A DNA stretch of 64,000 nucleotides, taken from contig OY811987.1 of the NCBI GenBank assembly GCA_963681505.1, forward strand, positions 2,253,066 through 2,317,065, in the 5' to 3' direction. Below the pieces are notes generated by a model, which ran no database searches, was not told the DNA's origin, and saw nothing but the letters and a program-made list of their open reading frames with translations. Shown here in pieces: positions 1-48,058 of the stretch. The number at the start of each line of letters is the position of its first letter. Position 1 is the stretch's first letter. Both the position numbers and the translations under genes were made by a program. Source of the stretch: Eunapius fragilis (taxonomy: Eukaryota > Porifera > Demospongiae > Spongillida > Spongillidae).

Positions 1-84
1 GTCACACGTTTTACACTGTTAATCGTTGTAATCAATTCAAAGTAGTGTCTCACTGAGGCTATTACTATTCAGTCATAGAACTAA

Positions 85-305
85 TCACTTTTTAATAATG
101 GTTTTGTTAAATTCCTTGCGCAGCTTGAGTCTGTCTCTAGCTGCAGTGACCCCAAGCTCTGTAAGGAGATCATCACTTGCTGCAAGAAGGTCCTGACCTG
201 TTATGTCGTCATGAAGGAAAGTTTCAACATAACTCTCCATGCCAATGCGTTTGAGAAACGAGGCAACATCTTCTGCACTGTATTCTTCACCAGAAATTAT
301 GGGGA
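85..305 (-). other. Last exon of the RNF213-like gene: C-terminal SAM domain
   Basis: The acceptor TTTTTCAG lies just above 305 and the stop codon TGA at 85-87. The roughly 70 residues fit a SAM fold: EEYSAEDVASFLKRIGM, then SYVETFLHDDITGQDLLA, then LTELGVTAARDRLKLRKEF. The spacing W/F-L...I-G...Y...F...ITG..LL...LGV...G/D-R-KL is the SAM signature. SAM domains make homo- or hetero-oligomers. Known RNF213 proteins end in a different C-terminal domain, so this is a lineage-specific tail. The 59-bp intron before it (306-364) has a clear donor (GTTGGT) and acceptor, which places the exon in this gene rather than a neighbour. Confidence 0.8.
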
Positions 306-3300
306 CTGAAAAAGGAATATCAAATTGGGAAGACATATGTAGCATCAGCAGCAAGACAACCAACCTGGAATTTGTGCCACAGGGGGTACATTGACTGTTG
401 CCTGTGTGGCTATAATAACTGGGATTGGAGAGGGGCTGACTTCTCCGATAGGAAGAATCGGGCTCATGTGATTGTCTTCCGGTACATTTGGTGGGCGAAT
501 AATGACATGAGGTTCTAGCCTCTTCCATAGGTCACCAATGCTGTCATTAAACTGTTCTGCTTCATCTGACTTTGTCAACTGGTTTTCTGCTAATCTCTTG
601 AGTAACCTAGTATGGAAACAATTGTTCAGTGACTCTCGTCTCACTCAACCCACCCATCCATGTTTACAGTGTAATCACACCTCCAAGTTATGATTTGCAA
701 GGGACTAACCTTCGTATAGCCAAAGTAAAGGAAACATAACACTGGATTTGTATGGAAGCAGGTATTAAATTCAAAAACAGTTGCTGTTTGTCCGAAGAGA
801 AAAAGCTTTGTAAATAGTTCAAAATAGTCTGGTTCTGCAGAAAGAAGCACTAAAAATATTTAATGGGGAACAATAAATTCTAGACCTCAGTCAATGGTTC
901 CTTTCCAAGTTTTACTCGGAAGAAGTTCAAAACGGAGTTAATTTGTATCACATAATCGTACAGCTGTTCCAAATCACCTACAGAGAAAGGCAGACTTTGT
1001 GAATAATAAATTCAGCACTGGTTAGATGTATATCCCAACCTTTCCAAGTTTTATCTAGTTGTTGCACTGATGACAAATCTTGCTCACTCATATGAGACTT
1101 AAATATGAAGGGAAGGTCACTGAACTCATATCTTTCATCTTTTACCCACTCGCCAAACAGTTGCATGGTGGATAAAATAGCAGACAGTGGGAGGCCACAC
1201 AACACACGTTCTTGTGCACTTGATAAACCATACACACCAAATTGATTTAAAGCCACATTTTCCGTAATTGGAACTGTGTTACGATCTTGAGTGAAGGACA
1301 GAAGTGACACGTGACTTAGAGCCACTTTTGGAATTGTACTCTGAGCAGAAAGGATCACCCTAGTGGCTGTGACCTCAGGAGTGGTCACACCAGCTCGACT
1401 ATCTTCAGGGGTCAACTGCTTGTCCTCAATCTGTGGAAGCATGCAACTATTAATCCCACATGTTCTCTAAACTGCCTCCCAACCTCCCGGGCTGCAAGCT
1501 CCAAGGCGTACTGCAAGCCTTGTATGACTGCATGCATTGTATTGAGACTAGCACTGTGGAATTCAAGTTCCAACTCCTGCTTCTGAGAGTGGGTTAGAGG
1601 TGCCTGCAGATATGGAAATCAAACTTCAAAGTTATACTTGGGCAGAATATTAACTAAGTACCATTAAAGACACTGAAATATTTTTTGAAGTGTAGCAGTC
1701 AACTGGAGACCTCAATGTACTGACACACATATGGTGATAAAATGGTATTATCTTGAACATTGACAGTATTTTGACTTACCCAGGGCTCTCATTTAAAACA
1801 GTCTTGAATTGAAACAATTTTCTCCTTTCATCAGAACAATCTATCTTATGTTTTCCAATCAAATACATTAGTACAATGTCCTCTTGCAGTCGTTTAAGGT
1901 CATACGCTCTTACTGGACCACAAAAAACTCCACGAGACATGACAACCCCAAGTGGTGCGTGCTGTCTATGCATCAGAGGAATGAGCTCTTCAATCCCATG
2001 AAAGCTGATGGGAAAAAAGAAAAGATTCTCAGTTAAGAATCATATGTCTGATGTGTGCTATAACGTACAGGTTATGTTTATTGGAGACATAGCAGTTGTC
2101 AGATACATCATAGAGGTCTATACTTGAAGACAGTTTGGTGGTAGGGACAAGATGACATAGGTGCTGTGAAGTAGATACAACTGCAAGGAAGTCATTGTGG
2201 AGGCTGCAGATGTCTGATATCACAGCCCAAAGGTAGTCCTTGCATTCACCCCTCCTCGAGGAATCTGATAGAGAAAAGATGTTGATTGTAACAGTTAATT
2301 AAGCAATGATTTACCAGACAGGAGGGAGATGATTAGTGAACTGTCACTTAATGGCGGAATCTTTAGTGTTTTGTTTCTTTCAGATATATCAATATAACTG
2401 TTATAACCAACTGAAATGAACAGTTGTAATAGAATATGGAAAAAGGTGAGGTAAATGTAGTCTTACCTTTTACTTTGTCATATAAGTCATGCAAGGCTGG
2501 ATGCTTACAGATGACATCACCAATTGTGGTAGTCTGCATTTCTTCGTACGTCAGTGTGTGTGCCAACTGAGAGTGCAAAAACCTATAGAACTGGACTAGC
2601 CCTGTTAGGATGCTTTCTCCAGTTTTTAGCCTGTTCCATTCAAAGGCAACTTTGGTAAGCAAATGAAACTCCCCACCCTCTTTCTGCTGGTCAAGACTCA
2701 TCTGCCCAGTTATTTGATATACAAATTCGGTTATCTTCAAGGGTTCAGGGTAGTCACGGCCAAGTACTCTGCAGCAAAGGAGAGCACTCATTCATATATG
2801 CTCATCAACCTATCAGCAAAGCAAAACACTAGCAATACATGTATAATCCTTCTCTCACTTAAGCTGTTGAAACAATTTTGAATCACATCGGGGAAACTAA
2901 AGGCAGAGTAAGTTGATAGTGAAATCTCTAAATGAGCATGTAGCATATACCGTATCATTTGCAGATTTAATTGCAGGCTGGAAGATATGGGTGTACCACT
3001 GTGCCTGGAACTCCTGCAGTTCCTTCCTTGAAGTAAAGCCACCCTGCTCAAGCCAGTCAGCACTTGAGCCAACCTGACACTGTAACTAAGCAAACATTGG
3101 GATAATGTTGAACCCAAACTAAATTAAAGATCAACCCATGTGCCTACTGTTTGCTTTAGGACACTGTTCACAAGATGAGATCTCTCTTCATCAGATAAAA
3201 AGAGAGTTTCTTTCATCAGCCTCCACAAAGACCTCAGCCGAAACACACAGTATCGGTGAGGAGCCTCTGAAGATCCTGTAAGGTCACGTATAGTATGTTC

Positions 3301-6300
3301 TGTTTCTGGCCGACAGAGTAGTGCAACACAGAGACTGCTAAATCCAATCAACAGCAGAAAATAGAACGACGAAAGGGTACATGTACCCAAACCAACATTT
3401 TGCAGATAAAAGCCTTCCAATTGCTGCAATAGATTTGCAGGAGCTCCAACAGCACCTTGCTACAAATGTAGAGGAGACACCACTACACCCAAGCACTCAA
3501 AATGGCAGCACAAACCTTAAAGCAGCTGCTGTGTGTCCCCACCAACTTCTCAGGTGAAAACATGTGATGCCAGAGGTGACTGCTGCTCGAAGAACACATG
3601 ACAACAGCAATCTGATTAGCCACACAGTCTCTAAGATCCCAGTCTGCTGATTCTGTAACAGGCAAAAAAATACTTCAAGCCTTTAATGTCTTTACCAATA
3701 GCCCCCACACACCTTTATGAGCAAGGAGGAGGTCATGGGTGGGTAGGTCACTTTGATTTTCTGTGAGGAAGTGCTTGATGAGGTCAGCATAACACCTGCT
3801 CCCTAAACATTTCAATAAACCTTCTTCGTCTAAAGCACCAGTCAGACTGGGTGAAGTTATCTGGAAAGATATGCATAAAATGATATAAGATTGGAATATC
3901 TTGTTGCACCTTCTTTTTGAAAAAATCGTAGTAGACAACCAACCAAATCATTGCACCAAGCAGGTTCTTTTTCCCAAATTTTAAGCTATAAGAGAAGTGA
4001 TGAAAAACAATTCCAATTTAAACATGGAACAATATCCTATGGATAAGCTCAGTAATACTAGGGTTCAAATTAAGTGGTGAAAGAAATTACAGTCACTCAA
4101 GTGGTCGTAGATAATTATTGAAAGTCACAATCAATGATGATGTGGGTCAAGGAATGCATACTTCAACACCTGGTTCTTTGTGATAAGAATTTGTACACTG
4201 GACATCTTCCCTCTGTGGATTTCAAGCAAGGCCTTCTGCACTGCTGCAAAAGTTGATAGCATATCATTGCTTAGTAGAGTAAAGTTTGACCTCAGAGGAT
4301 CTGTTAGACCCTGCAGAGGAAGGAATGAGAGATCAATGGTGACAGTCATGTAGCTAACCCACCCTCATTTCCTGATGGGCTAGCTGCAAACACGAGATGA
4401 GGCTGCAGTGGGTTTCATATGATCTGGTCATCATGGTAGTGAACTTGGTGGTACTATTCAGCCTCTTGAGCAGGAAGTGGCTAAGGACGAGGTGGTGACA
4501 TCCCATTGGACCTCCACCCCTGCTTGGATCACCCAGGTGTGCATTCACATCGTCATGCAGCATGCTGATCTCGCCGCGGAGACCTCCATCACCACGAGGC
4601 TCCACACATGCACTGAGGCACTCTGCAACTCGCTGGATGATGGCTTGAAGCACAACTTGGAACTCAATGTTTAGGAGAATAACCTCCTCCCCAGTGCAGG
4701 AGGACTGTTTTGTTAATGAGATTAAACACTGTAATAGCTACCTTTCCCAACAGACCTTTAGGACCTTTAGCATCTGCCCTGCAGTACTGATGAGCTTTGG
4801 AAGAGTGTGGTCGCAAGCTTGAAAGCTTTCCAGTAGAGTGACGAAGTACAAATGAGCCAAAGGACTTGTTTCCTCTTTTCTAAAAATGGGAGTCTGCTGA
4901 ACAGAATTGTGCATTGTATTGTTTGACAGAAATGGAACAGGCACCCAGATGCAGCCCTCCATAGCATAATGCTCAATACATTTCAAGTGCTACTAACTAA
5001 TTATGGTAAAAAAAAAATGATGTCTTGGTTACAAATGTAAAAATTATAAATAGCACACAATTGGTTATGAAAATTTTCAATACAATGCAAACACTAGCAG
5101 ACCAAAAAAGACATGGCTCAATACAGCTTTTGGTTCCACCAATTCCTATTTATTTGCCACCCCTCACAATATATTCAGTATTGTGCTGGTTGCAAATATG
5201 GACAGAGACGTAAGTTGCAGTGGGTAGGAAACAATGGGACTCACATATCCATCCAGTTCCAGTGTGAGGGTTGTGTAGAAAGGCGGCACAAATGGCTGAG
5301 AAAACAAAAAGCTAGACTGCCGAACCAATGTGTGTAGTAGAGCGTCGCGATCCTGGGCCAGAAAGAAACAAACCAAATGCAATGCATCAAACAGATAATT
5401 GAACTCCTGCGACTTACTGATTTTTTTCGAAGTCCAGGAGGACAAGCAGTCTTGTCATTATTCATAATGCGTGACATGTAGAGCTTAAACCTTTCCAGGC
5501 TGTGCTGATAGGGATCATCTGCCTTATCATGGTAACCACACCAGTGGTACTGTCTGTTGGCAAGCTCAAAGAAAAAGTTGATGTCGTCTGGTTTGTAACC
5601 TTCATTTTGACTTTGGAAGAAGTGATCCAACAGCCCCTCTATTGCCCTGCACACATGGGACCCAAGTGAGGTTAGGCCCCGTATGCTTTCTGTTGGGGAT
5701 TCAATTAATTCTACTATGCTTTGAAGGCTGCAATTTGTCTTCACCTGAAATCAAAAATGATATAAAATACATGCAGGTGCTACACAAATCTCACCTCAAG
5801 GTTTTCCTCAAAGTGACGGTCACGAAGGTGACTGAAAGTTTGTTCTGCCACTAAATTTGGGTCAGGAAGAAACTGCAGTAGCATAAACACTGCCTGCATA
5901 ATGTTCAACATTGTTGTAGAGGCACTTGTGTCAGTGCTACTATTTAGTGTACTACTGATGTGACTGCCCAACATCCCCACCAGGTCCCTGTAGTGATGAT
6001 ACCAAGAGGTCATTGCATTAGAACAGCCACACTTTTCCTGCAGCTCCTGACAGGCTGCCATTAGGTAGTGAAAGAGAACTTGGATGGCAATGTGACCCAA
6101 GAACTGTTGAGAAGGCACAATGCTTGCAGAAGCTATTGAAAGTTCAGGCCTTTGGATGGGGAAATGTGTATAAATGGCAGATTCCAACTTATGAACCTCA
6201 ATGATCTGACCCAGAAGGTGGATGACCTTCAAGAGGTCCAAATCTTTGGCTCGACAATACACATGCAGCCAAAAAACTTTGTCAACATTTTTCATCCTTT

Positions 6301-9300
6301 CGAAGTTACCAAAATATGCTTTTACTATGAATTCTTTAAATTTGTCATCTGAGCTGTAAAGTTGTAAGTTGAACTTGTAGGAAAGGAAGGAGTCAAAGTA
6401 CATTGCCCACAATTTATCATTGTCCTGCAGTTCAGTCATGAAAACAGTGATAATACTTTTATCACCCTGAAAATAGATAGCAAAAATTCTAAAACATATG
6501 CAGTACAAAGGTTAATGGATGGATTGCAGTACTGACCCTTAATTTCGATTATTTCAATTCATATTAAAAGATTGCACATAAAAATGCCCTCCAAACACAC
6601 ATATGCTGTAAACTAGCATATTATGGTTTCGACTTCTATGAATTCTAGAAATGTAGCATTTCTATGGCACTACTGACAGTAAAGGCTGACATACGCGGGT
6701 CGACTTCCTGCCGATTTATCGCCAGCAACTCAAATGAATATGCGTAAAAACTCAATAAAACTTTAGTTTACTGAATTCTCACTCGTATTCATTTGAGTTG
6801 CAGGCGATAAATCGACAGAAAGTCGACCTGTGTATGTCGGCCTTAAGAGGCAAGGAGGTGAATTGATATACATTATAGTATCTTCATCACAGTTAGTACA
6901 ATCTACAAGGTAACTATTGCCAAATTAGTATTACTTTCCAATCAATACAAACTGTGCTTAACATAGTTACTAAAATGAACTGGATGCTAGCCAGATAAAC
7001 ATATTGAAATTAAAAACACACAACCATACCTTCTGGTGCTGTACTGTCACGTTCTGTAACACATTTTGATGCAATTGGTTGATTAAATCATTAGAATCGT
7101 AGGATTTTTTTTTGTCACTACACAGCTCAATATTCGACTCAATACTGTCAAAAATGATTCTAAAGAATGGGAAGGTTTCACTAGAAATTGTGACATATGA
7201 AGGCAATGCACCACTAAGAAATCTAATGTCTGTGAACTCAGGAAGAGGCAGAAGCTCCAGTATACCCCAAAACAGTTTCTGCAACATGCCATAATTTTGG
7301 TGTAGAGTATCAAGGTTACAATTCTCAATGACCTTTGACAACATCACTATTAAGAAATCAGAAAAATCACTCTGGACAGCTGTTTGCATGGATTCTATAA
7401 TGCCATGTGATGCTCCATGGGACGTTGCAAGTAGAATAATTTTCCGAAGGTAATTAAGAACCATACCTTGTTCAAAGTATGAACAAAATTTATCACAAAG
7501 TATTGAACCAACCTCTGTTTCGACCAGCAAATGCTCTATCTGATTAGACCGCTCAGTTAAGAACACTACACTCTCTTGAAAAGCTAGTGATACTGTATGA
7601 GATACTTTAGGTGCAATAGCAACTAGACCTTTCTTAATGGTCTGTACCAATGAGTTAGTTAATGAGCTTTCTTGGGATGGAATACAACTATATGTTATCC
7701 AATGCCTCATATTGAAACCATCCACGTGTTCTTGCAAAGTGTGTAGGAAAGTGTGGTCCCATCCAGTTACAAAGAGTGAAGGATAGCACAGACTGTGAAG
7801 CTGCAATGTGGGGTTACCAACCAAAATGAGAAACAACTTCCTTCTGTGTACAGAACCAGATTCAGATTCTTCAATCAATATTCGGACATAGTTTAATTTT
7901 GCACATGTGACCTCATCCATATTTGCTATGAGCAGTAATATGTGTTTGTCAGAACTTACAAATTGATCCAAACAATAACGAATGCTCTCAGATGGAAGGC
8001 GGGATACATTATTAATTTCAATGCTCGAATCAGGAGCACTACCCTGCAGTGGGTCTATCTCCTGAAGTGTAGACACTTTCAACAGCTGGGAGACTGTGAA
8101 ACAACTTGCAAAACAGAGGATTTTTGTTGAGCAGCATATCCTTTAGAAATAGAAAGAGGATAAAAACTTTTACATACAAAAGAATATTGCATACCCTTCA
8201 ACAGAAACATATCTTTTCAGAAGGTGCTTTAGTGAGAAGTGAACTTGACTGCCAAGGTAGCTTTGCAAATAAGGTGGTGGAATATTTTTGAGATGTGTTA
8301 TCAGTCCTACTGTTGTCATAAGCTGCATGAGCCTTTTGTACATATACATAACAAGCCACAGTGTTGCCAATTTTATAGTAAAACGTCCCATCATTGAAGT
8401 AATGCCCGATTGAACGTCAAAGATGGCAGAAAATCCATCATAAATACCATTGTGCACAGACTGCTCTGTCAGGCTATCAATTGTGTACTCAAATACGTCA
8501 CCGTCATTTCGTATCTTCATCAACAGATACCGGGCATCCATGGCTAGCTCTAGAGGATCTATTAGGTGCTGAGTACAAAGAAGATATAACAGAATACTAC
8601 CTAAACAAATATCTCACAATGCTTACAGAGCTAAACCTGAATCCAGCACGACTTCTTAACTCAGCTACTATTCTTCTTAAAAAGAGCACACCTGGATCCA
8701 CTCCACTCTGCTTATACACCTCCACACTCTCATCGCCATGCATACTGAGATCACGTTTTGTGGGCAACATCGACAGCACTAAAGAGTCAATAGTGCTGTC
8801 GTCTTGAAAGCCACAGAAACTTTGGGGTCCACCACAAGTAGTTGCGAATTCTTTAACCTGGAATAAATACACAACTTCAAATATTTGAATAACCAAGCTG
8901 AAAAATTCACCTTGCTCTTTGCAATCAACACAATGTCTCTCAAGCAAGGAGGTTGAACACTCAATGCAGCCTCCAGAAGGTTAGAGTGAGTGATAAAGTA
9001 CTTCTCAAACCTATTCAGAAGTGGAGCAGGTGTTCTGTCAAGGTCCGACTTCTTGATCACAACAGCACACTGGAAGTGTGGATGAACTTTGCAAGGCCTT
9101 GTGTGGTCACCGATTGCAATGTTTGCATAATACTGAACGCCTGTAGTTGGGTCATCAATCCTACGGAACCTCTGATTGAATAGGTCATAGAAACTCTCGT
9201 GGATTGCATCAGCCTGACTCATAACAACAGTGTATCCTTCCGCCATGTATTTACGTACAGCTGCTATCATGCTGACCTAAAAAAAGTGTACAAAGTGAAG

Positions 9301-12300
9301 AGTAATAGAGGTGACCATAAAACTCTTACCTTTTGTGAATGGTCTGCAGAGCGGTCTGTGCATATGAACCTGGTGCTCTCTATCTTTAGTATATCAAAGG
9401 CAAATAAGAAACGTAACACAGACTCATCTTCTGAGGCATCAATGAACAGTTTGTAGCGAACTTCATTTGACATATGCTCATCTCCAGTGAAGGTGTCCTG
9501 TGCTTTGCAGCACTGTGCATCCTGAATGCTGGCACGTACAATATCAACAATGCTTCTCTTTGATACACGGTCAAAATTCTAAAAAAAAAAAATGGTAATT
9601 AGTTACCTATTCTACAATATCATGCAGCACTTACATCTGGAAGAAATATTTTACATACATCAGCAAACTGGTTGGAACCATTGAAATTTCTTTCCAAACC
9701 TTCCATTATAACCTGGGGTGATAACATTTCACTGCGGTGGTTGCGAAGGTAATAAATAAAGTAGATAAAGTCCCTCAGGCCAAAGAGCTTTTTGGTAGGG
9801 GCAGGTTTTACCATCATGTTCCAATATGCATTGCATAACCTTGTGATTACATTGATATCGTCTTGCCCTGGGGAAGGAATGCCATCAGCTATGTTAGTGA
9901 AGCACCCCTTAGCTAAGGTGATGAGATCGTTTTTGGACATTTCTGAACGAAATAGTGTGACTGCACGGTTCATCTTAGCAGCATCAAGCATGTGGTTAGA
10001 AGTGGCAACAAAGGACACTTGAGGGTTATCAAGGTAGGAGTGTAGTACTTTCAGAGATTCATGACGTTCATCTGGCAGACCAGCTTCATCAATGCACACA
10101 ACACAATTCATTTGAAGATTGGCACTCGTGTATTTATTTTGTCGATCGATAGCACGCTGGAATACTGTGTCTATTTCATGGGATGTGCTCTGCCGTGAGC
10201 ATTGGTAATAGTACAGAGTTAAGGAAGGAAAGAGGTGTGTGTTCCGAAATAGCAACGATTTTGAATCTTTTCCCTTGAGATTCGAGATCACAATGTTGAA
10301 TGAAAGGGTTTTTGATGCGCCTGGGGGTCCGACAATTATCAATGGTATACGGGTTCCTATACAAAGAATGGCAGCAAATAGATTTTCTTTAAGTGCTTCT
10401 GTCCTTGCAATTCCTGGTGGAAGATACACTTGGTTTGAGAACCAGTCTAGTTCTTCGTGGAAAGCATCAAAGAATGTCATTGAGCTTGATGAGCAGGATC
10501 TATCAATTAGTTCTATGTACTTCGCTCTGAAATTATCATCAAGTCGCAAATAATATGCAATGCCAATAGCCACCAATATGCCTCTTTTATGATGATCTGC
10601 ATCCCTCCCATATTGCTTGTATTTGTTATATACACGCATAAGCCACTGATACAGTGTCATCACTCGCTGTATGTCCCGCTGACTGACACAACTCTTGGAT
10701 GCCTTGTGAGCCTCATCCTCTGTGGCACCACAATTAATCAAATGCTGCATAGAAAATTCACGAATGGCCTTTTGGCTGGTTGAAATTAGTGATGTAAGAA
10801 TAGCAACCTCATGATTGAGCATGTTCTTGTTTATTAGCTTCAGCTTTTCATTGATATAGGCAACTTCTTGTTCGTCATTTAGCGATCCATAATCCCATGT
10901 TAGAAGGTTTAACGTTGGGTGTAGTTTGTGGACACTGTATGAACTCTTCACCCAGGAATGTTCATAAAAGGCAAGGCTGTTACCTCGATGAGGATTACAA
11001 GCAGCTACAATGAACAAATTACGTGGAATGGGCTGTGGGTGTGAATGGTGTTGGAATAAGGTTTGGTAATATGGGTACTTACATCTCCATCTAACATCTT
11101 ATCAACGATGATTTCTTTAAAAAGCCCAGGGCAGGATGATGCATTCATTTCATCAAAAAATATCTGTGGTGATAAAGATGGTAAGTAATATTACATTAAT
11201 GGAGTGAGCAAGTAAGCTTACTGTAACAAACGGAGTATTATCTGAAGGATCTGAAGGTGTGGATTCTGATGTAGATGCTTGAAGTATATCAAACTGGCTT
11301 TGAAGTAAATTGGCACGTGCAAATGCTGGTTGCAAAATTTTCCTGACATCAGTAGGCGTGAGAGCTGTTGTAAAAATGAAGAAAAAAAATGAATTCAATA
11401 ATTGCAGCTTATTTCATACTTACAGGCATGGACATTCACTTTGTAGAATGTACTTGCAATACGAGTTGAAAATAAAGCGTGGAGAAAATTGGCCACAGTC
11501 TAGACCATAATACGTTGATTATGAGTGGTATACAAGTCTACATGTATATTGGTTACCTGAGATGTAGGTTCATTACATGCTTGGGTTACACACTCCTCCA
11601 GACCCAGTCCTCGGTAGTCCTTGCACATTTGAAGCAGTGGAATAAGGGGAATGTGTCTGGAAATGTTACGCACTACCCTGTCATAAAGCAGGTCATACAC
11701 TGGCTTCCCGCCGCCATGTTGCTGATTGCATAACAGGACCATATCATCATGTGTGATGGTGTCATCGCTACTTAGAGCTTCCACAATGCGGATGCACTTC
11801 TAAATAACATGATTGTAAGAGATAATATAATCATCCTTAAATTTAATCCTCGATGTTGTAGAGATTAAAACATGTGTAGCACACAGCTTTATCATGTCTA
11901 TTGTCTGAATACGAGAGATTATAATGCAAGGTTCTAAGTAAATTACATGGTATATGGTTTGCAAACATAATAAGATGTTCATACATTTCTGAGCTTATTC
12001 TTACCTCATAGTCATCACTGACTGTTAATTCACCAAATACTCGCTCCAAATAATGAATTACATCTTCTTTGGCTTTGTCAAACACTAGAACAATTGCAGA
12101 ATTCCAAAGTTTTGAAAGCATCTCAATTAAGGCTGTCTTTCCAACTCCAGTCTCTCCTTCTATAATAACTGGAACTCCACACATCCGTCTCTCATTAATG
12201 TTCAGCATTTTAAGTGTGTAGTCAAGTGTCAGTACATAATTGGATTCAACAATAGCTTTAAGGCGTTTTTTTGAATTTAGTGGAATCCCCAGTGCTTTTG

Positions 12301-15300
12301 ACAATAGTCCATGTAAGATTTCAGCAGAATATTGATCCCTGAAAATGTGGTGCATGCAACATTATCTACTCAATTCAGGAAGATAGTTAATTTACACACC
12401 TAATGGTGTGGATTGTAATTCCAATGCTTGTTAACTTCATTTTCTCCTCCTCAGTTAGCTTTTCTGGATGAAGTGTAATGAAAGTAATGGTGCCTCCTCC
12501 ATCCACACATTCATATAGAAGCTTTAAAAAAGAAGGGTAACAAATGTATGAATTGTTTGTGTGCATCATGTGCATTGGCTAGAAGTTCATTGCAACTATT
12601 AAATATAGTCCAAACCACATTATTCCCTATGATATACAAATCGGGGATTTAAAGGGACCAAGTGTGATATTATAAAATTTTCCAGAAAGGAGTATATAAG
12701 TGCAGTTGAAATGTTCACATATTTAAAACTCCAGTCCAAGGTAATTCATGATGGACAGACCCGTGCATAAGAAAGACGTTATAGAGGATCTAGGTGTGTG
12801 AAATAATTTGAAAACTTGGAAAAAAAAAAAGAATTTAGCTATTTTATCTCTTTAAAAATTGTAAAAAATAGTTTGGGATTATACTCCCCATACAGGCAAT
12901 TTAATAGTAGTGAATGGAGAATTGCAAAAGAAAGATTGTGAAGGATACTGATCTGGTCCTGCCTCTGCTTGATTAGGTATAGACAACCTTCAACTTAATA
13001 GATATAATGCAACAATTTAACACGAACCAAGAACACCCCACTGCAAACATACAGTCTTTTATATCCTGCAACACCTTACAGGATTGTTGAGGAGTCCGTG
13101 TGAAGGTCAAATGCATCAAGCACTTACTAACAATACTAGAAAGGGATTAACCTAACACCACCTATAAAAAACACAATATATATAGTCTATATTCTTATGC
13201 ATGATCACAACACTTGTACTTAGCATGTGTTGTGATCATGCATAACACACATGACATCAGTGGGAGTCCCCACAATCCCTCATGCCCTTCCCTTCCTCTC
13301 CGGTAGCAAACTCGTTTGCTGCACCATTAGATCCTAGTGCCCTTGATAATGCATCAGCATTTCCATTTGTCATCTCGATGCACAACAGTGAAACCGGGAA
13401 TTTCTATCCTTGAGTTTATCCATCCAAACTAGAGAACGATGATCTGTTTCAACCGTGCAAGGTCTGCCGATTTGAAAGGCATGCATTACTAGTTTAATCG
13501 CCAAGCATTCCTTTTCAATGGTGGAATAAGGTTCCTCTCGTGGTTGCAACTTTTTACTGTAATATGCGATTGGGTGGCCATCTCCCTCCTCACTCCTGAC
13601 TCAACACAGCTCTGAAACCATGGTCAGAAGCATCAGTCTGGAGTATGAATGGTTTATCGAAATTTGGACTGCAAAGTAGTGGGGAACAGCATAGTATGTG
13701 TTTTAGTTTCCCAAACACTCGATGGCATTGCTCTTAACACTATTTTAGCATCAATGAGAAAGTGATTTTATAAGAATAGGTTGCTATTCATTAGCCATCT
13801 TTGCGCCCAGCAATTTTAATGATCTCATAAGTAAAACTGCTCATGATTTTCACTGTGCTGTGGCAGAGTTTTGTGACAAATTCTAAACAACAAAGATTTG
13901 CTAAGTGATGATACAGGTGATGATGGTAAAGGTGATGATGGTAAAGAAAAAGATGAGGAAGTTCAAAGCACATCCTCTCAGGTCAGTCCTGAGCAGCTTC
14001 TTGTAAATTGGTTATTGTTGGATGCTCTTAACCTGCTGTACAACTCTACCTATCATCTCTACGACACATTTCCCGAGGTTTGCAAGGTGTATTCAATTGC
14101 AGTTGCAATTCCTATTAGTACATGTACTACAGAACGCTCGTTTTCTGCCCTAAAACGCGTTTAAATTCCACACCTAAGAATATGTAACACATAGTAACTA
14201 TCAATTAAGGTTAGTTAATGATCTTGGAATGCACTACTAAGAATTGCCCTGATGTTGGCTCTAACAAGGGTCAGGTTTAGCCTCCCATGTAGAGCTGCGA
14301 TGGCTATGGACTTTGGGCAGTTCGGTCTGGTACCCAATCGGAAGCAAGATGAGATATCTTCTGTACCCCAGCAACCATATGTCTCCACTGCAAGTGGGAT
14401 GGACACCCATTCCAGTTCAGCACATTTGGCATCATTGGACCTATGCTTGCGTTCCTCGATGGCAAAGGCTACAGACCTCGCTGTCACACTCACTTCAGGT
14501 AAACTGTTAGAAACTAGTGGTGATGTGACAGTGAAGTCGAATGCAGCCGGCTTGCCCATCATCCAATTTTCAGCAAGAACATCAGCTGGTCATTTGCTGT
14601 GCTCATGAAGACCATAACCACTCCCCACCTCTACCTGCTCATGAAGACCATAACCACTCCCCACCTCTACCTGAACACCAATCAAGGCTCGTCGGCATGA
14701 CTCCACAAAAACATCCCGTAGCCTGTTATGTCAGATGACCACATCACCTCCGTGCTTGCATGTCAATGTGGTCCAAAGAATGGGCTGGTGTCCTGCTATT
14801 TAACATTGAACATGAGGCACCAAATATGGGGATGTCATGCTTTGCAATGACTGTTACAAGGACTTTATTTCATTGCAAACTTCTACCATGGCTTCAACAA
14901 GTGTTTGAATCTTTACAGTAAGGGTCTCTGGGGGAATGGTGCAGGGGGAACAGACTAAAAATGAGACTAACATGAGAGTAACAAAACTAAGATCTCAGAA
15001 AAATATTTAGAAGAGATTAAATTACAAGTAGGGAGAGATTGTTTTGAGTGTGGAAGTAGCAAAGAGGCTAGGGAGAAGTATGCTTGCGGGGGGCAAACCA
15101 TTTTGCAAAAGTAAGCCTAATAACTGATAAAGCAGAAATTCTTGCTGAAGACAGACGGGAAATTCATACAATGCTAGCTAAAATGGATTCAGATATTGAT
15201 GACCATGCAAGTATTCTTTTCTGTTGAATAGAGGCTTGCTCTAATACATCACATGTACCGTAGCATCAACGTCTTGTAAAGCGGCCTTGTTCATTGCATG

Positions 15301-18300
15301 CACCCTAAACAACTCTTGATCATTGTTTAATGCCAATCACCACCTGCTACAGTGATGCTCGTTAAGTGACGCTCAGAATGCACAGTTACGCACAATTGCT
15401 CTCAGTGGTATTGCAAATTTGTTATCATCTCCTCCACGTTCGGTGTCTCAGTGTAAATGTCATACGTTTAGCAATGACACATATGTCTTTTTAAAAATGA
15501 CATTGCAAAACCTCTTTGTGTTGTGGTATGGTTTACTGTCCAGGGTAAAATGGTCAACTTATAGTTTTAAATCCGCTGGCCCTATCTTTAAGAGAAAGAG
15601 TTTACAGTATCTCTTGCTTCTGCAGACTCCTCACCTGAAGGGGCTGATGTAAGTCTCTCCGTCTCAAAACGTTGGATTTAGTAGTCCTGTTCTTTTGCAC
15701 ACGAGTCAAAATTTTCAAACCAAAATCTTTGTACTGCAGAATTGCTTCATGCCGAATTACTACTGTTTTGTCAGCCATGCACATTCAGCATGCGCAATGC
15801 CTATAAACATCAGTAATATATATAGCCAAGTCCCTGTAAAGGTCATACTGGAAAGTAACAGCTCAGAACAGTGGAAAATTACAGACATTCGTGGTCCAAC
15901 AATTGAAGTGTTAATGTCAACATGGTAGCACATCTGTTACATAACTTTCAAAAAATCACGGTAGCCAACGCCCTCTATTTTGGTTTTCTTTTTGACAGAT
16001 GGCTGACTTAGTCTTTGTTAGAGCCTGTTAGTTAATCAATATTTGCTATGCCCTATTTAGTACCAAACCATTTTATTAACAAGTAACTAAAACCATTGTC
16101 TACGAGAAAGTTGGTGGTATATAGGATTTGAAGGCAATTGGTGCTGTAAAAAGCAAGGAAACAAGCTCACAGAAGGGAAAATGTAATAGTCGTATTTTTA
16201 GCACATCCTCCCCCCCCCCCCCCCCCAGCACGTAGCGAGTGAAGTAATCCGACGTCCATGGATCTGGGTACCTAACTTTTGGAGAGAGGATGTTAAGTTT
16301 GACGTCCCTCGATCAAAACAATCCAGAACATTATCGTAATAGTACAAAAATTTATTTAAAATTACGTCTTACAAGTAATCTAATTATGCATCTTACATAG
16401 ACCGTATAGTCGATTGTTTACCAAAATATAACATCGACTATTTTATATGAAAGCGGCTCTTCCAGCCGCTATGGTGAAAATTTCATTGTTTAAAAGTGTT
16501 CCTATCCCAAGTTATGTATTGCCAAGAAGAAGGAGGAGACCATATTCTGGGACTGGGTACGAGGACAGGCAGTACCCTTTTGTTCTCTACAACCGCGCAA
16601 TTCTGTGTCATAAAACAAAGACATTTTTGACTTCTAACTCAATTGCTATAACAAGCTAAATGATCCAATTATCAGGAGTCTTGTTAGAGATGGGTTGCAT
16701 GTTCTAATGAGATTCATAGTCCAACTCAAATCCTATATGGATGTTTCTAGCGAAACTTAGTATGCGCATCTAATAATATTTGCAGTTCTCATAAATTACT
16801 ACCTGAACATAGTGTAAAAGGTTACTCTACTTATTTCACAACCGTGATTCCATTGCTAGCAGATCTTTTTGGTTTTAGATTTCCCCTAATTTGGACCCAG
16901 ATCACTCGCGGATGTGGTGTTAACAGTTACACCTCCATCACACTATCTCATCCCCAGGCTCCAATTGTAGTAGCACGTGCGTGAGGTATGCTTCTCTATG
17001 CACCTGGGATGCAGGATTTCTAGATATTTGAGGGTTGGGTTAAAGATGAAAGAGACATGAATTCAATGCCTTTTTAATAGCCACAGTAGATTTATAATGG
17101 AATAGTTTCCAGCAAAATCACCCTTATGATACTTTATCAAATATTCCAGGACAAGCAAAAGAAAAGTAGCGCTCGCAAAGAAATGGATGGTAATTATAAA
17201 TTCAGTGCCTTATAACTTTATGATGGACAGTCCAATTTAGGCTGCGCAAGGACCATTTGAAAGAAACTCTTTGGAGTTCACAGAAAATGAAAAAAAATTA
17301 GAAAACTTGAAAAACTACACAGAAGGGTGAATCTACTGGACACTGTCCCAAATATACAATCGTTTAATTGCATTTATTGATTTAATGCCTTTTCAATACT
17401 CCGTATGAACACTGTTCATTTTCCTATCCATGTGATTGATTGCAATCTGCATCAATGGATTCCTGATCATGTAGGACCCATAGGCCTGCCACCCATTGGG
17501 TTTGAAAGCAAGCTGTATTTCTGTGAACCATACTTAAAAGAAATTAAAAAGATTGCAATTTGGTTTGAAGGCAATCTGTTTTTTAAAGTATGGTTCACAT
17601 ATGACAAATAATAGCTTGCTTTCTAACCAGATTGCTTGGCACAAGAAATACCTTGAACAACATCGGCAATACATGCAAAATTAAGTCATTCAACTGATAA
17701 TACATTTCAACAACAGCGCATCAAGCACAAATGGTGGAAGTTAGCACATTATTACAAATATATCATCCACTCAATGAACTTGTATGATGAATCAGTGTGC
17801 ATTTGCCAATGCAATATAATATTCTCTCACATACCTGGCGGTGGTGTTGAGATGACCAGTCTGTTTTGTCTGAAAGGCAAAGCTCCCGAACCTCACTCAG
17901 CATTGCTGACATAAGGGTTGAACCAAGATGAGATGTGTCAGTGAAAGTTTGCGACAAGGAGTCAGGAATGCCACGCCCGTTATTATAGGTAAATTGTGGT
18001 ATTTGTTCCATAAAACTGCATCTGCGTTTCATGTACCTGTAATGCACCAGGTCATAAAAGCTAGGATTGGTATTGCATTATTAAACATACTCAATAAACA
18101 GCTTCTGGGTTATCTTGTGATTCTTAACACATGGAGGCATTGCCTCCTTCAGCAGTTCAATGCATTTTCTGTCATCCAAGTCTGTATCGTCACTAAATTT
18201 CACTTTAGGCCCACCTGAATTTTAATAAGTTCAAAAATGCAGTTTTGTTATATAACAGTATTGATAAAGTTCATATAAAGTTATTTTACATGTTTGCAAG

Positions 18301-21300
18301 GAGTCATCATCAGGTCTACTTAGTCTATTGATTCTGGTATATTTATATAAGACAAAGGTCAGCCTTTGTGATAAAAAGGGAAGGGAAGTAACACAAAAGG
18401 ATATTTCAAGTATAAATACAGCTTGAGTAGCAAAGCTGGCAAAGGTAGACCATACCAAAAACACTGTAGTGCAGCATGAAACCAAAGGGTCCAAAGAAAC
18501 AAGTTGCATTCTTTGGTTTTTCAGAGATAAAGTAGACATCAATGAATGATTAACTGTATCCACCAAGTGCTTATTTTAGTTATGAATGTTTGATAAAAAC
18601 TTAATTTCCATCATCCCCATACAAATGTAGACCTGGGTTCACAGCAAAAATTATGACTGTTTGGTCATTGAAGGGACTTTGTTTCTTTTTAACAGTACTG
18701 ACATACAGTATGTAGGATCAGACCAATATGAGTAAGCTCTTATGCACATGTTTTCCTTACTGTGCGTGGAGAATAATGGATAGCTCAGCATGCACAGTTT
18801 GTTAGACATGTATTTTAAGCCATGCTTTTCTAGGCCCAATCTTATAAGGACCTGCCAATAATGAATGTTAATTTTAATTTTTGCTGCACATGCGGACATA
18901 CAATTGTATTCTTGGGATGGCAAAAGAAATGACAGAAGTACAATGAAATACTTATAAATATGGATACGTTAACATGGAACCGAAAGCAATAGTATGGCCA
19001 CGTACCATCTATGTACAGTCTTCTATCAATATCGCCATTTTTGCATGCTTGCAAATATTTGCACACCATTTGCACACTGTGGTCGACAAAATACTCATTT
19101 TGATCATGTCTGACATGTGGGGAACCCAATATATCCAATGTCGGGATTTCTTTTTTGATCCAACGTTGTGATTCTTCCAATGATCCACAAAATGGAACTT
19201 CAATGTACACTAACCATGTCAATCCTCTTGGCATTCGAAATGACAAGCCTGATTTGCAATCTTCCACATATCCCAGAATGAGTAAGTCAAAGAAAAACCA
19301 ATTAATGACTTTCATCAGTGCAGTGTATGCGGAAGAATTGTTTTTTTCTGATACCTATAATTATGCATAATTAAAACAAATACAATCATTCAAAGCACTT
19401 CTTACTTGTGACGGAAGCAGTGAAATATTAAAATAAATACTGCAATTAGCCACAGGTTTAAGCATGCACAGCTTTGTGATTGCAGCAAGTGGTGTAAATG
19501 CTTCATTAATTGCAATCACCACATATTTATTATACTTCAAAAGCTCTTTCCTAATGGAATGGGATTTCCCATTTCCTGCACCAGGGAAGTAAGAAGAAAA
19601 AATAAATAATTGATTATATGACAGAAGCTGTATTGAACTTACCAGGATTGCCATATACCACCTGGATGCATGCAAGGTCCTCAGGTGGTGCAGCTAATTT
19701 CCAGCAGATAGTTGTAACTTCATCCATAGGTTTCAGGCCCTAAAATATAGTTGATGCACACCATATAACGATGACAGTGTTGCAGGTTTTGAACCCAAGG
19801 AATTTACAAGTATACAGATACATGTAGGACACATGATTTTAGTTCAGTTAAAATGATGGACATTTGGTCTCGTCTCCATTTGGTACTTAAAGATCAATAA
19901 CGGGACCATACTTACCCTGATATTGGAATGTGACCTATCCTTATCCACTCACTAGAGTCAATAGTTTGATTAGGTGACCTATGAAGACTAAAAGGATGTA
20001 TGTTCCATTTTATTTGCATTGAGAAGATGAAAAGTAGTTCATGATTGTGTCACTAAGCAATCCACTAAGCAAACGATAAAAACAGATAGAACCTGTATTT
20101 TCTGAAAATTATAAGAACACTTTGAAAATAGCAGATTTTTCACAGGGAAAAGCAGTCCTCTCACAATTTTATAGGCATAACTTCAACTCTATTCAATTTT
20201 TATCCTTAGTACTGAAGGATTCAATCAATTGAGTACACCATGGTGCCATACCAAAAATTCAATGTACGAGACCAATAACTGAACCAAATCTAAACATTCA
20301 TAACCTTGCTGTAAATGATTCTGTAGTGTAGTGTACGCATGCGTTAGTGTAGCATACGGTATGCATGCGTATTGGTGGTGTGTTTGGCTATATAAGTGCA
20401 TGACTGATGTTATTATGTGCCCTTTGGTTGAACCGGAAATTATACAACATTACAGTGGTGTCAGAAGTGGGATGGCGGAACGGCAACCTATTCCGGTTTA
20501 CTCACATTGGGGGCCAATTTTACCTTGTGGATAACGCGAGTGGAGATGTATCTTCATGCGGCGAAGATCGCTACAGAGAAGCATGGACAAGAGCTGGTTT
20601 GTCTACTGGAGGACGAGCCCTTTAGACTGGTAAGTCAGCTTGGTTTAGTAACAGACACAGTGTCGTATGCTGAGGTGAAAGTGTGCCTTGCGTTGCACTT
20701 CGCGCCTGCAGGAGTGGAACTAGAGTGGCAGTCTCAACTACACGGTGCAAGGCAGGTGAGGGGTGAGACAGTCATACAGTTCGCCGGTAGGTTACGCGGG
20801 TTCGTTGACAGAGCGTACCCTAGTTGGTCGTCAGCACAGAGGTGGGAAGTTGTGCGTAACCAGTTTAGTGTCCTTTGGTTGAACCGGAAATTATACGACA
20901 TTACAATTCTGCCAAAAATGAAATGCCTCCGATAAACATGGAAGTATGGAAAATTGGACAGACATAAGTATCATTTAAAAATGAAGGTTATTTATCTTGC
21001 ACTGCATGCATGCATACTCAGAGCAGCGTAATGGAAAAAAAAACATGTGATAAAGATAAAGGCATGTTAAAATATCAATAGTGAAAATGAAAATGCAGGG
21101 GTGAACATGATGACGGATTAGAGACAATTTGTGCTTGGTATGTGCTATGTTTTACGGAACAACGAGGATGTTAACTGATCAGAACGAAAAAGCACGACAG
21201 AAATAAAACACTTGAGAACAAAAGAATAGAATGCACATGAGTCATCAGACACGTGATCATCTGGAAATGCAATGAATAATCTCAATTACAGAACTATGCA

Positions 21301-24300
21301 CACATAACACCTCCCTGTCAGCCATGAAGTATGCAGGTGAAAGGCGATACCACTACTTCCTGTTCCTGGTGCTGTGGCGAGGGTTGTTAACAGGACCATA
21401 CTCATTCCCAGTGGGAAGTCGGGGGTTACGTTGAGTTTTCTTTTGTGTGGCAGGCTGAGGCACTTAATCTCCTTGGTCCAAGTGTTCAGTACTTTCATGC
21501 GTCTCTGACTTTGCAAGTGGAAGGTCCTTAGATGGTAGTGGTTCTGCTGAAACCTGTAAGGAAGTCACGGTGGCAGGAAGCTCTCCAGGATCTGAATCCT
21601 CTAAAGAGCCATAGCGGTACTGCAGCTGCTCTAATGACGTACTCAGAGGGAGAAAACCAAGGAGGGAAGAGGAGAAAACAAGCCAGGGCTGAGGTGTTAC
21701 AACTGCTGGGAAGAGGGTCATGCTAAGTGCCCGAAACCTAAAGACAAAGCCCTATTGTACATAAAGACTGGCGCCAGAGATAAGTCGAGAGGGGTGCATG
21801 AGTAGATGGGTGCAAGTTGGAAGGGATAATCCTGGACACAGGGTGCGCACGAACCATGGTCAGGAAGGACATGGTGCCAGCGGGAAAAATCATGATGGGT
21901 GATGTGGTGACAATTCGTTGTGCTCATGGGGGGGACACAGTTTTGTATCCTTTAGCAGCAGTGGAGTTGTAGGTGGATGGTCTTAAAATGTCAGTGGAAG
22001 CCTCAATTTCAGAAAATCTACCAGTACCAGTACTCCTAGGGCAATATGTTGCACAGTTGGCTGAGTTACTCGGAAGAAGAGCCAATATCAGAGGAGGTAA
22101 TGGTGTTAGTCACTTGGGCCCAGGCACATAAGCAGCTGAAGGAGGAAATTTCGAGACAGGAGCAGGAAGTAATTAGGAACCGAAATCGATGCCGGAGCTG
22201 GAGGAGGTAGGTAAGTCAATTTCCACAGGTGGCAGATATGGCGGATACTAGTCTAGAGCAGGGTGCTAACAGAATTCGGCAGCAGGGGGACTGTCTAAAA
22301 AACAACAGGGAACGTCCAGTACTGGACGTGTCTAATGTTGAATTGGTACAATTGCAGAACGAGGATGAAACTCTGGCAAGGGTACGAGGGATGGCCGAGT
22401 AGAGGTTTTGTAAGGAAGGATAATTTGTTGTATAAAAATTGATATCCATTAAGAATAGGAAAAGCATTGCAGCAAAGCATTGGTAATATCAAAAGGGTGC
22501 AGGGCTACCGTGCTTAAGCTGGGGCATGAGATACTGTTGGCAGGCCATCTGGGACAAGAGAAAACGTGTTGAAGAATTCTAAGGCATTTCTACTGGCCAG
22601 AGACGTGGAAGAGTTTTGTCGTTGCTGTCCATGATGTCAGAAATCGACTACTCAGAAGGTAATGCTGTTACCGTTGATCCCTTCACCTGTGATTGCGTAG
22701 CCATTATTCACACGGATAGTCATGGACATTATCAAGCCACTTCCAAGGAGTAATAGCAGCAAATTATGCTGAGATAATTTCGCCCCTGATCGATCTGGTG
22801 AAAACATTGGCCCTTAACCTCCGCATTGTTATGTTGCCGTGCACGGAAATTCATTACCGTACACGGCAATTTAAAATGACGGTCTTTCAGGAGTCATAAA
22901 TTAATCTAGCGCTAATCCCATTTGTTCGCTGAACTCCTTTTAACGTGACAAACGAGTGCAATTATAATCTTCCATTGCTTGGAACAATGAAGGGTTAAGG
23001 GTCAAGACTACAAATCTATTGCTAGCCATGTTTTTCGGGTTGGTAACTCATATACTCGCAGTACAATATAGCTGGAGCGAATAAAAGTGCGTGACAACTC
23101 ATTGCTGACAATGCACACGAGTCAACAAATACATGTATGTATCACGATTTCAGCTATGGCATATAAACTTTAACCCGTGTGTACATAGGATCCTCACAGT
23201 GATAGTTTATGGCTCCTATCAGTCAGTATCAGTCAAGGTGTCTTGGTCGTCTGAGTGCAATGCTGTGTTTAGAAAGTTTAAAATGGTGTTGTGTTCTGCC
23301 TGTGTCCTAAACAGCCCAGATTTTAGTCAGAAATTTATCCTTCCCACGGATGCGTCAGACCGAGCGGTTGGTGCAGTGTTAAGCCAAGTGAACGAAGGAG
23401 GAAAATAACATCCAGTTGGTTACTTTAGTAAGAAGTGTTGCCTTGGAGGAGTGCTACTCAACCATCGTAAAAGCCATAAGGATGGGGTAGTAGCATTCAA
23501 GGTTTATCTGCTAGGGTGGGACTTCGTCATTGAAACTGACCATTGAGTGTTGCAGTGGTTGAACAGTTTGAAAGACAGCAACGCAAGGTTGATGAGGTAG
23601 AGTTTGACACTGCAAACGTATTCATTTTCAGTGCGACATCGGCCAGGAACGACTAACTCCAATGCAGATGCCCTGTCCAGGATTACGACAACAAAGGTAG
23701 TTGATGAAATTGAGGAGGAAGAAATGGGACGGAGCCGATTTGGACTGTAGTCTACATTGCGTGTGATAATTATAAATCTATTGGTTGACATGTGAGCATG
23801 CGCAAGTGGAGGGGGGGGGGGGGGGGGGGTATAAATTCATGTGTATGACCATTAAAGAGGGTTCTATTTCCTGTGTTTTGGTCCATTGTATTGCAGGGAA
23901 GGCGTAGGTTCTCGGGAATCCACCAAAACCATATTAGGCCTTGAAGACACAAAACTGAAAGTGAGCTTATGCGGATGAACCACATTCTAATACCCAAAGG
24001 TATTAACTGTGGCCCTTTACACATCGTATGAAGACTGTTCATGTGGAACATTATGTCACCAATAAGGAAATGCAGTTTCTAAAAATCTCTCATTTTATAT
24101 AAACATCATCATCCATGTATTTTCTAATCCTCATTTCTGATCCCCAAGTCACAACCTTTTTACATGCACATACACATTACTGTATTACTTAAAAACACCG
24201 TCTTGAAATAATTGCACACAAATTACAAGGTATAAGACAAATATTACATGCATTAATTAAGTTCATACACTTCATACTTTATGTGTCAAATATTTACCTC

Positions 24301-27300
24301 TCCATCTTTCAGTAATGCTCCAGGCATTTCTCCTAACATCGATTGATCAGATTCAATTAGATGAATGCAGGATCGACATGGAGAGCACTTGAATTGCCCA
24401 CTGAACTGAAGGAGGCGCTGCAGACAAGTGCACAGCAGTGATGAAGAACAATGCATAATTAAAAAAGCAAGCAACTTCATACCTCTTGAAGGTGGAAGGG
24501 TAACTTATTCACTTCAAACATGGCATATTGACGTTCAAATCGGCATGTTCTCTCCAAGAAAAAATCAAGTTCACCTTGTGTTAGGGAATTCTGGCAGTGA
24601 AGTACTTCAAATGGCTCTGGAACTCCATCATATATGGTTACTATAAGCTGCACTAACTCTACACTGCTGCAACCATGTCGCTTATGAATGACAAAGTGGT
24701 GGTCATCTGATTTTGGCAATATCATTATCCGAGGTTTAGGCAATGCATGATGTGTAAACATTATATCCAAAAAAACTCCCACAGCCTCCAATGGGTCAGA
24801 ATCAACTGCATGTGAAGCAGCTAGTGCTGCAGACTAACGTATTGGAATTTGTCATAAAAATGGTTAGTATTAAAGAAAAAGCACTTACCTGCACTCGACT
24901 GCTAAGTTCATTCCGCTGTTTTGGAGTATTTAATGTAAGAATGCTAATATCATGTACAATTCTAGCAACATCTGGCGGCATCGATTTAATTGAAGTGTAT
25001 AATCTTAGGATCTTCAGAATAGGGAAAAAAAGCAACCATTTGTGTTGAGCTTGCAAAAATGCTATCCGCTTAGACCACTCTTGTACTTTGTGTGTTAAAT
25101 CCGTAACCTATATCCAGATATGAAGATTAAAGGGATACTATAAAATTAGTCTCCCCTCCCGCAACTAACCATATAATCGGAATCCTGCTTAGCTGTTGAA
25201 CACCTTAGGAACTGTGTGGTTTTCATATTGGTCAATTCAGGGTGACATAGGTTCTTCAGTTGGGTAAACAAATCGAAAATCTTTGATGCAGTCTGGGTGG
25301 AACCAGGAGAAACATACTAGTAAACACATGCTAAGTGCATAAATGACCATAAATGCTTACCCACCTCATTAACGTGGTAGAAGTGTTTTATGTAGCATTT
25401 TGCATCTCGCGATGAGTCAATGAAGCCAAGTTTTGCAATGAATTCATTTACTTGTTGTCTGTCCCAGTTAACAGCTAATGGGGCACCGTCCTCTGTTGTT
25501 TGTAAACTTGCTTGGGCATATCTAAAGCACAGCTGATATTCAGGTGTCAAAGAGTCCATGTGCGATTCATAGTAACCAGTTGCAATTATGGCTTCTAAAA
25601 CCTGCATGCTATCCCCCTGAGCCAAAAAAAAAAAGATATGGTAAGGTTGCATTCGTACTAAAAAGCACAAACCTCAGTACTAGAAAACCATAAATAGATC
25701 TGTGAAATATTTGTGTTTGCTGTTTCTAGATGCTTCAATCCAGCACAAATATCTTTGATCATTGCTATTGCTGACATCAAATCGTGCAGAGTTTGATCTG
25801 GGTTTGTGAAAATCAAAATAAGTTCATAAGCAGCATAGAGATGATTTAGAACCGTATCATTGTACTGCTCATGTTGTAGTTGTGCTGTCAGCAGCTGGTA
25901 TTGCTGTTGAAATGCCTGTCGACCTTTAGCACCGACAAATTTTTTTTCCATTATAAACTTGTGGAATTCAGCACTATTGGCTGCAGCAGAAAAAAGGTTG
26001 AAGCATGCAAAAGTACTGGTTGTTGGAAGGCAAAGGATAGAGCACAACATTCTTAGTTTTTGGGAAGCAGTTTTCGGTGTTAGATCAGCTTTCCTATTGT
26101 TAGCACCATCAGCTATGGAGATAAGCTCTTTAAGCTGAGGGTCTTCTAGGCAACCTCTTAGCTGGTACTGAATACACACATCCTGTATCCTCTGTACATT
26201 CATAGATGCTTTTAACAGTTGAAGTATGTCAATAATGTGGAAGAGTTCGTCTTGGTTCATTTGTGGCTCATAAAGTGCAAAAAAGGTTCCCAGAACCTTT
26301 ACTTCATTTACCACATCAACTTCTGTCAAGTCATTTATGCCAGATGTTATATCAGAGTATTTTGCTGTACCATCCAGTAATTGATACAGCATTTTCTTTG
26401 AATTTGAGGCAGCCTCCAACAAACATTCCAATCCAGGGCAATCTGTCTTTAATACAGGAAGTGGAAATGGATTCAGAACAGATTGGATTGGAGGTTTAAC
26501 AGATTCATTCAATTTGCAAATTTGGGAATATTGAACGCGAAGGTAACTGGTGAAAAGCCGGCATGTGTGGAGCTGAAAAAATATTAAGATTTCCATGTAT
26601 GCAGAAATAGGTTGAATGAAGTGACTAATGTTCTCATTAAGAACCACAAGGTTTTTCAACGTCATATCTCTTGATATGCACAATGGATCTTCCATTTTCA
26701 GCTTAAATGTACCTGTACAGCCATTAGGCAACATCTTCCATTGCTTTGAAGAAGTTGCATTTTTTCCTGGAAGTTTTACATACTTTGAAATAGAGGCGTG
26801 AATATCAGGTGAGAAATTAATGCCAAAGTTTGCTAACAGAGATGGCAGTGTGCACCATTCAGGATGCCCAGGAACATATTTAATTAGCAAAATATTTAGC
26901 TGCTCATATTGCCTTCTAAATTCTTGCTGCAAACTGTCCAATGTTTCTAGCTCCATCAGCAGTTTTGAGTCTGAAGGCAGTGCATCCACCACACTGACCA
27001 AATCAGTAGCGTAGCAGCTAGCATACTGCTGCATGCCATCGTAAGTGATGTGATGCATCTCCAGGTTGGTACGCCAAGTCAAAAGTATGTTGCGAACTTT
27101 ATCAAGAAATTCAAAACATTTGGCGACTTCTGCATTGGATCTGTGTCTGCTTCCAATCTTGCCACAAATCTCTCCAACACTTATGATAATCGGAAGATGA
27201 TTATGAATTGACTCTAAATTTGTGCTTGAAATATCAGCTGCTTGACAGAAGGCTGCTATTATCCGCCAACAGAATTCCTGACGGGGTGATAGTGTTCTTT

Positions 27301-47489: not shown

Positions 47490-48058
<569 letters not shown>

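What the first reader, a model, noticed from the sequence alone, without database searches (positions are those of the whole stretch)
85..12521. RNF213-like giant ATPase without RING or RZ finger, capped by a SAM domain
The AAA core (AAA3 and AAA4 Walker A/B intact; AAA5 and AAA6 signatures) is unmistakably RNF213-class, and the total length is close to RNF213. Yet about 1,500 residues after AAA6 contain no RING or RZ cysteine/histidine pattern, and the last exon is a SAM domain. This could be a mysterin that has lost or replaced its ubiquitin-ligase chemistry and gained a self-assembly module, for example to polymerise rings on a surface.
Basis: partly seen in the sequence, partly recalled or inferred. 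Interest (0 to 1): 0.82.

Follow-up and report, generated by a model that had tools for sequence, protein, structure and literature searches.

The report
Ligase-free RNF213 giant with SAM tail
A sponge-like genome carries a family of giant ATPases related to the human immune protein RNF213 that keep its motor and body but lack its ubiquitin-attaching finger, and most end in a protein-assembly domain instead.

Summary
AAA3/AAA4 Walker A/B are intact, no RING or RZ was found after AAA6, and the last exon is a SAM domain under purifying selection.

It is one of a family. The genome has 12 close AAA4 loci; a C-terminal exon occurs at 13 loci, 11 followed by SAM on the same strand. Six protein records from elsewhere, including Oscarella lobularis and a transcriptome-style EukProt entry, join the AAA core to a terminal SAM.

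On an AAA4 tree this clade (36 rows, no RZ found; 5 end too early to tell) separates from 12 RZ-bearing rows at 100/100. RZ was also undetected in 13 long-tailed rows on the RZ side of an earlier tree, so RZ loss is not unique to it. Profiles show the E3 scaffold retained (1,362 columns, E 1.8e-26; reversed control 0.81) with the RZ segment excised: 42-55 residues in 11 rows against 88-147 in 19 RZ-bearing rows.

Best reading: a ligase-dead RNF213 relative that keeps ATP-driven recruitment and uses SAM for assembly or docking. Anatomy is shown; mechanism is inferred. My searches found no published description.

The parts
24298..29537 (-).
   Evidence: Collinear tblastn blocks to the contig 16 paralogue; exons of the spliced model
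17835..19739 (-). AAA2 region; Walker A GNPGNGKS at 19661-19553 (split by an intron)
11083..12521 (-). AAA3 exons; Walker A 12169-12119, Walker B 11163-11134
9635..11032 (-). AAA4 exon; Walker A 10339-10292, Walker B 10102-10064; 12 close copies in the genome; matches RNF213 structures at E 4e-36
8911..9276 (-). AAA5 exon (conserved block 9210-8995)
7020..8140 (-). exon with AAA6 (7956-7744) and start of the hinge
5556..5818 (-). segment at the RING position; no RING match
3319..3497 (-). segment at the RZ position: 46 residues here, 88-147 in 19 RZ-bearing RNF213s; finger absent
710..2768 (-). end of the E3 core and C-terminal domain exons, homologous to the RNF213 C-terminus
361..606 (-). 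linker exon(s) before SAM
88..305 (-). SAM domain exon (domain 285-97), stop codon at 85-87
   Evidence: dN/dS 0.20 against the contig 16 paralogue over 69 codons

Best explanation
This is a ligase-dead sister lineage of RNF213. Shown: it keeps the RNF213 AAA core with catalytic AAA3/AAA4 motifs and the RNF213 E3 scaffold, but the RZ finger (zinc site and catalytic Cys/His) is cut out, no RING is found, and a SAM domain is attached at the C-terminus. Inferred: it works like the coat-forming half of RNF213. ATP hydrolysis drives or licenses recruitment to a microbial or vacuolar surface, and the SAM tail (one to three copies in different paralogues) supplies subunit-to-subunit contacts, or docks a SAM-bearing partner, in place of ubiquitin-dependent amplification. 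The RZ-bearing RNF213s in the same genome would do the ubiquitylation.
Against: No transcript from the window's own species. No functional data. In the same paper RZ mutants failed to coat the two bacteria, so coating without a ligase is not general. Two of 13 loci lack a SAM hit, as do P0002 and P0068, so SAM is not essential to the fold. The SAM charge pattern is not diagnostic. The AlphaFold model of the E3 region was too poor to use (pLDDT 43.6). The SAM-containing clade has only moderate support (86/90). RZ was also undetected in 13 long-tailed rows outside the clade, so RZ absence alone does not define the lineage.
Confidence: 0.5

Rival explanations
1. The SAM tail is a heterotypic docking site: it recruits a separate SAM-containing enzyme or adaptor (for example a SAM-bearing ubiquitin ligase or a SARM1-like protein), so effector chemistry is supplied in trans rather than replaced by polymerisation.
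For: The genome gave 80 SAM_1 matches, so partners are available. Structural neighbours include SAMs solved in heterotypic complexes: CNK/HYP, liprin and Scm/Sfmbt.
Against: Several paralogues carry two or three tandem SAMs, an arrangement also seen in oligomers such as SARM1. No partner was identified.
Confidence: 0.33
2. The protein is still a ubiquitin ligase by another route: a cysteine elsewhere in the retained E3 scaffold accepts ubiquitin.
For: The scaffold is retained, and a few single Cys/His columns are conserved, e.g. His3855 and His4571 of the window model in 7 of 7 rows.
Against: RNF213 alleles with RZ mutations lose target ubiquitylation (PMC11549300, passages). No Cys column after AAA6 is shared by all 7 aligned rows. 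CXXC count is zero in window, P0001 and P0063, and 1-5 in the other four rows.
Confidence: 0.12
3. A decaying or mis-assembled RNF213 gene that happens to lie beside a SAM gene.
For: The automatic model contains one stop in a poorly supported stretch near 18.5 kb.
Against: An alternative splice choice there is stop-free. dN/dS 0.20-0.28, SAM exon included. The same architecture occurs at 11 of 13 loci and in protein records of other organisms.
Confidence: 0.03

Closest known systems
RNF213 (mysterin), RZ-bearing
   Same: AAA core with catalytic AAA3/AAA4 motifs; E3 scaffold and C-terminal domain alignable over 1,362 columns; similar total length
   Different: No RZ finger and no RING found; SAM tail added; separate clade at 100/100
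Oscarella lobularis uncharacterized protein (P0063, 4,928 aa)
   Same: Same architecture: RZ-free RNF213-like body with terminal SAM 4856-4924
   Different: About 31% identical to the window model over the AAA part; annotated only as an uncharacterized protein
Sycon ciliatum LOC135819351 and LOC135819352 (P0079, P0080)
   Same: In the same clade without a detected RZ
   Different: No SAM; P0079 carries precomputed SH3 models (names recalled), and both tails look beta-grasp-like by eye
SAM domains of Shank, DGK-delta, SARM1, tankyrase, Polyhomeotic
   Different: Unrelated host proteins; oligomerisation of the window SAM untested

Membership tests
RNF213 E3 ligase | catalytic AAA3 and AAA4 motifs, and AAA4-AAA6 alignable to RNF213 | tested here: met
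RNF213 E3 ligase | complete six-unit AAA ring (AAA1 as a separate unit) | not tested
   AAA2 Walker A seen; AAA1 not examined on its own
RNF213 E3 ligase | E3 scaffold (back/shell/core/CTD) after AAA6 | tested here: met
   hhalign prob 99.7, E 1.8e-26, 1,362 columns; reversed control prob 0.1, E 0.81. Smaller profiles reached only the last 355-418 columns
RNF213 E3 ligase | RZ finger | tested here: not met
   No Pfam hit in three frames or in the spliced protein; none by local HMM in P0001-P0008, P0063-P0082; segment excised
RNF213 E3 ligase | RING domain (not universal: undetected in 10 of 19 RZ-bearing rows by a vertebrate-trained HMM) | tested here: not met
RNF213 E3 ligase | ubiquitin transfer with UbcH7 | not testable with these tools
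   needs biochemistry
SAM domain superfamily | profile match over curated cut-off and five-helix fold | tested here: met
polymeric SAM | head-to-tail mid-loop/end-helix assembly | tested here: inconclusive
   Acidic mid-loop and basic end-helix in 6 of 6 family SAMs, but also in 7 of 8 other SAMs of the genome

The most novel reading that the evidence does not exclude
Sponges run a two-arm RNF213 system: RZ-bearing ligases plus an expanded set of ligase-dead, SAM-tailed ATPases that build self-propagating coats on microbes or vacuoles without ubiquitin. The RZ finger would thus be a removable module of an older ATPase-driven coat machine.
Probability: 0.3. Interest if true: 0.85.

Novelty: new variant of a known kind. 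Interest (0 to 1): 0.62.

Why it matters
RNF213 joins an ATPase, a ligase and coat formation in one chain, and it is unclear which part does what. A natural lineage that keeps motor and scaffold but lacks the ligase finger makes the ATPase/coat function directly testable apart from ubiquitylation. It also warns that automatic names such as 'E3 ubiquitin-protein ligase RNF213' (P0069) can mislead for members without an RZ, and it points to an expansion in early-branching animals that my searches did not find described.

Tried and rejected
Single-sequence phmmer of the C-terminus against the PDB found no RNF213. Small-profile hhalign aligned only the last 355-418 columns; richer profiles were needed. 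AlphaFold of P0063 3559-4614 was poor (pLDDT 43.6) and was not used for a fold search. The charge test for SAM polymerisation failed its own control. The PF13920 RING genome search listed no hit in the 13 loci, but scored only 150 of 426 candidates and listed none at the RZ-bearing loci either, so it is weak evidence. Considered and rejected: SAM as a separate gene (relatives' single proteins, 11 of 13 loci), pseudogene (dN/dS), skipped exon with RZ or RING (three-frame scan; an intron-split finger is not excluded by that scan).

Rows dropped; 67 rows, and by a strand error only 5 of 12 own paralogues. There 27 ungrouped rows fell on the RZ side; by local HMM 6 have an RZ, 8 end too early and 13 have a long tail but no detected RZ; 39 rows, two of those 13 (P0012, P0034) again on the RZ side; 48 rows, 12 named rows left out, P0012 and P0034 among them. 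Of its 24 database rows on the RZ-free side, 5 (P0066, P0070, P0074, P0076, P0082) end before the RZ position. In one search P0067 was dropped from the family profile. On checking, I lowered interest from 0.64 to 0.62 because RZ absence is not confined to this clade.

Full report
Gene model. The window is C17:2253066-2317065 of an unnamed 218.9 Mb, 24-contig genome. The closest named relatives of the gene are sponge proteins. Exon-by-exon tblastn against a paralogue on contig 16 (L032-L035) shows collinear conservation from the SAM exon (62% identity) up to about 29.5 kb. The finding's 12,521-85 is therefore roughly the C-terminal 60% of the modelled protein.

AAA core. The AAA4 exon matches RNF213 structures at E 4e-36. 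Walker A and B of AAA3 and AAA4 are intact in the window model, P0002, P0063 and the contig 16 and C14:4.26M models. The C14:1.11M model covers only from AAA4 (intact), and my pattern did not pick up the AAA4 Walker A of P0001. Profile comparison to ten vertebrate RNF213s from AAA4 onward: prob 100, E 3.2e-48. AAA1 was not examined on its own.

No finger. Pfam at E<=1 over three minus-strand frames of 1-9000 finds only SAM, and so does the spliced C-terminus. From the end of AAA6, 15 columns hold Cys/His in at least 5 of 7 aligned rows. They are scattered; CXXC is zero in window, P0001 and P0063, 1 in P0002 and C14b, 3 in C16 and 5 in C14a.

Scaffold kept, RZ cut. With 11 family rows against 19 RZ-bearing rows, the post-AAA6 region aligns over 1,362 columns (prob 99.7, E 1.8e-26). 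A column-reversed control gives prob 0.1, E 0.81. At the RZ position the family has 42-55 residues and the RZ-bearing rows 88-147, with no overlap. At the RING position lengths overlap (family 30-114, RZ-bearing 31-138), and a local RING HMM finds 9 of the 19 RZ-bearing rows, one weakly; that HMM was trained on vertebrates, and P0016 has a Cys-rich segment there that it misses.

SAM belongs to the gene. The C-terminal exon occurs at 13 loci, 12 of them downstream of the 12 AAA4 loci on the same strand. SAM follows within 2.1-8.8 kb at 11 of 13; C14:4445105 and C14:6881301 have no listed SAM. Several loci have two or three SAMs. The weaker AAA4 matches fall at ten more loci; eight have an RZ downstream on the same strand (about 8-12 kb, one 33 kb) and none a nearby SAM. 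Of the 12 close loci none has an RZ. These genome searches score best candidates exon by exon, so absences are lower bounds. In other records SAM lies at the C-terminal end of P0001, P0063 (Oscarella lobularis), P0064 (EukProt entry whose name has the style of an assembled transcript), P0065, P0067 and P0069 (EukProt 'scpid', recalled as Sycon). P0065 and P0067 share their last 537 residues.

Evolution. On an AAA4 tree of 48 rows, 12 RZ rows lie on one side of a 100/100 branch and 36 rows without a detected RZ on the other (12 own paralogues and 24 database rows, 5 of which end too early to tell). All 16 SAM rows lie in a 24-row subclade (86/90) with a few SAM-less members. Against a simple picture: in the 67-row tree 13 rows on the RZ side have long tails but no RZ by my HMM. 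They may hold diverged fingers or independent losses; two of them were and were left out. The tree is midpoint-rooted, so loss of RZ versus never having it is not decided; RZ-bearing rows include Naegleria and fungi, which favours loss. dN/dS between window and contig 16 copies is 0.20-0.28 in five regions, 0.20 in the SAM exon, at dS 1.0-1.3; among close C14 copies it is 0.22-0.38 in the AAA4 exon.

Mechanism. RNF213 coats need ATPase activity on all three pathogens studied; RZ mutants fail on the two bacteria but still coat Toxoplasma vacuoles; the authors suggest oligomerisation within the coat as one possibility (PMC11549300, passages). AAA3 and AAA4 are the catalytic units, and RING-less RNF213 remains an active ligase (PMC7311170, passages). 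A ligase-free, SAM-tailed version would be the coat-forming half with a dedicated assembly or docking module. Each step after the anatomy is inference.

Literature. Searches for RNF213 with SAM domain, sterile alpha motif, sponge, Porifera, RZ finger orthologs, mysterin/metazoan and domain-architecture terms listed no paper that appears to describe such proteins (listings only, apart from passages of the two papers above). The library holds open-licence PMC papers only.

Noticed in passing
P0003-P0008 and P0079-P0080: A sister group inside the RZ-free RNF213-like clade, including Sycon ciliatum and Rotaria rows, has long tails that by eye look like tandem beta-grasp (ubiquitin-like) repeats; Pfam found no tail domain in P0007 or P0008, and P0079 carries precomputed SH3 models.
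   Followed up: partly
P0009, P0011-P0014, P0026, P0034, P0037, P0039, P0043, P0059-P0061: Thirteen RNF213-like rows on the RZ side of the tree have tails long enough for an RZ but none was found by a local HMM; diverged fingers or separate losses.
   Followed up: partly
window 50567-59400, + strand: Ankyrin, LRR, COR-like, kinase-like and repeat ORFs in order, resembling an LRRK/ROCO kinase gene (by eye).
   Followed up: no
window 32235-34846, + strand: Two overlapping ORFs that look like a non-LTR retrotransposon reverse transcriptase (by eye).
   Followed up: no
window 47242-48225: CA/TG-type simple repeat giving long His-Thr reading frames on the minus strand.
   Followed up: no
G000:C16:1894466-1894642: A second SAM match with the same score as the contig 16 paralogue's SAM (47.7 bits) but no AAA4 exon match nearby; probably a partial duplicate.
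   Followed up: no
G000:C14:2354076-2359171: C-terminal exon and SAMs with the same scores as the C14:2296536 copy but no AAA4 match; probably a truncated segmental duplicate.
   Followed up: no
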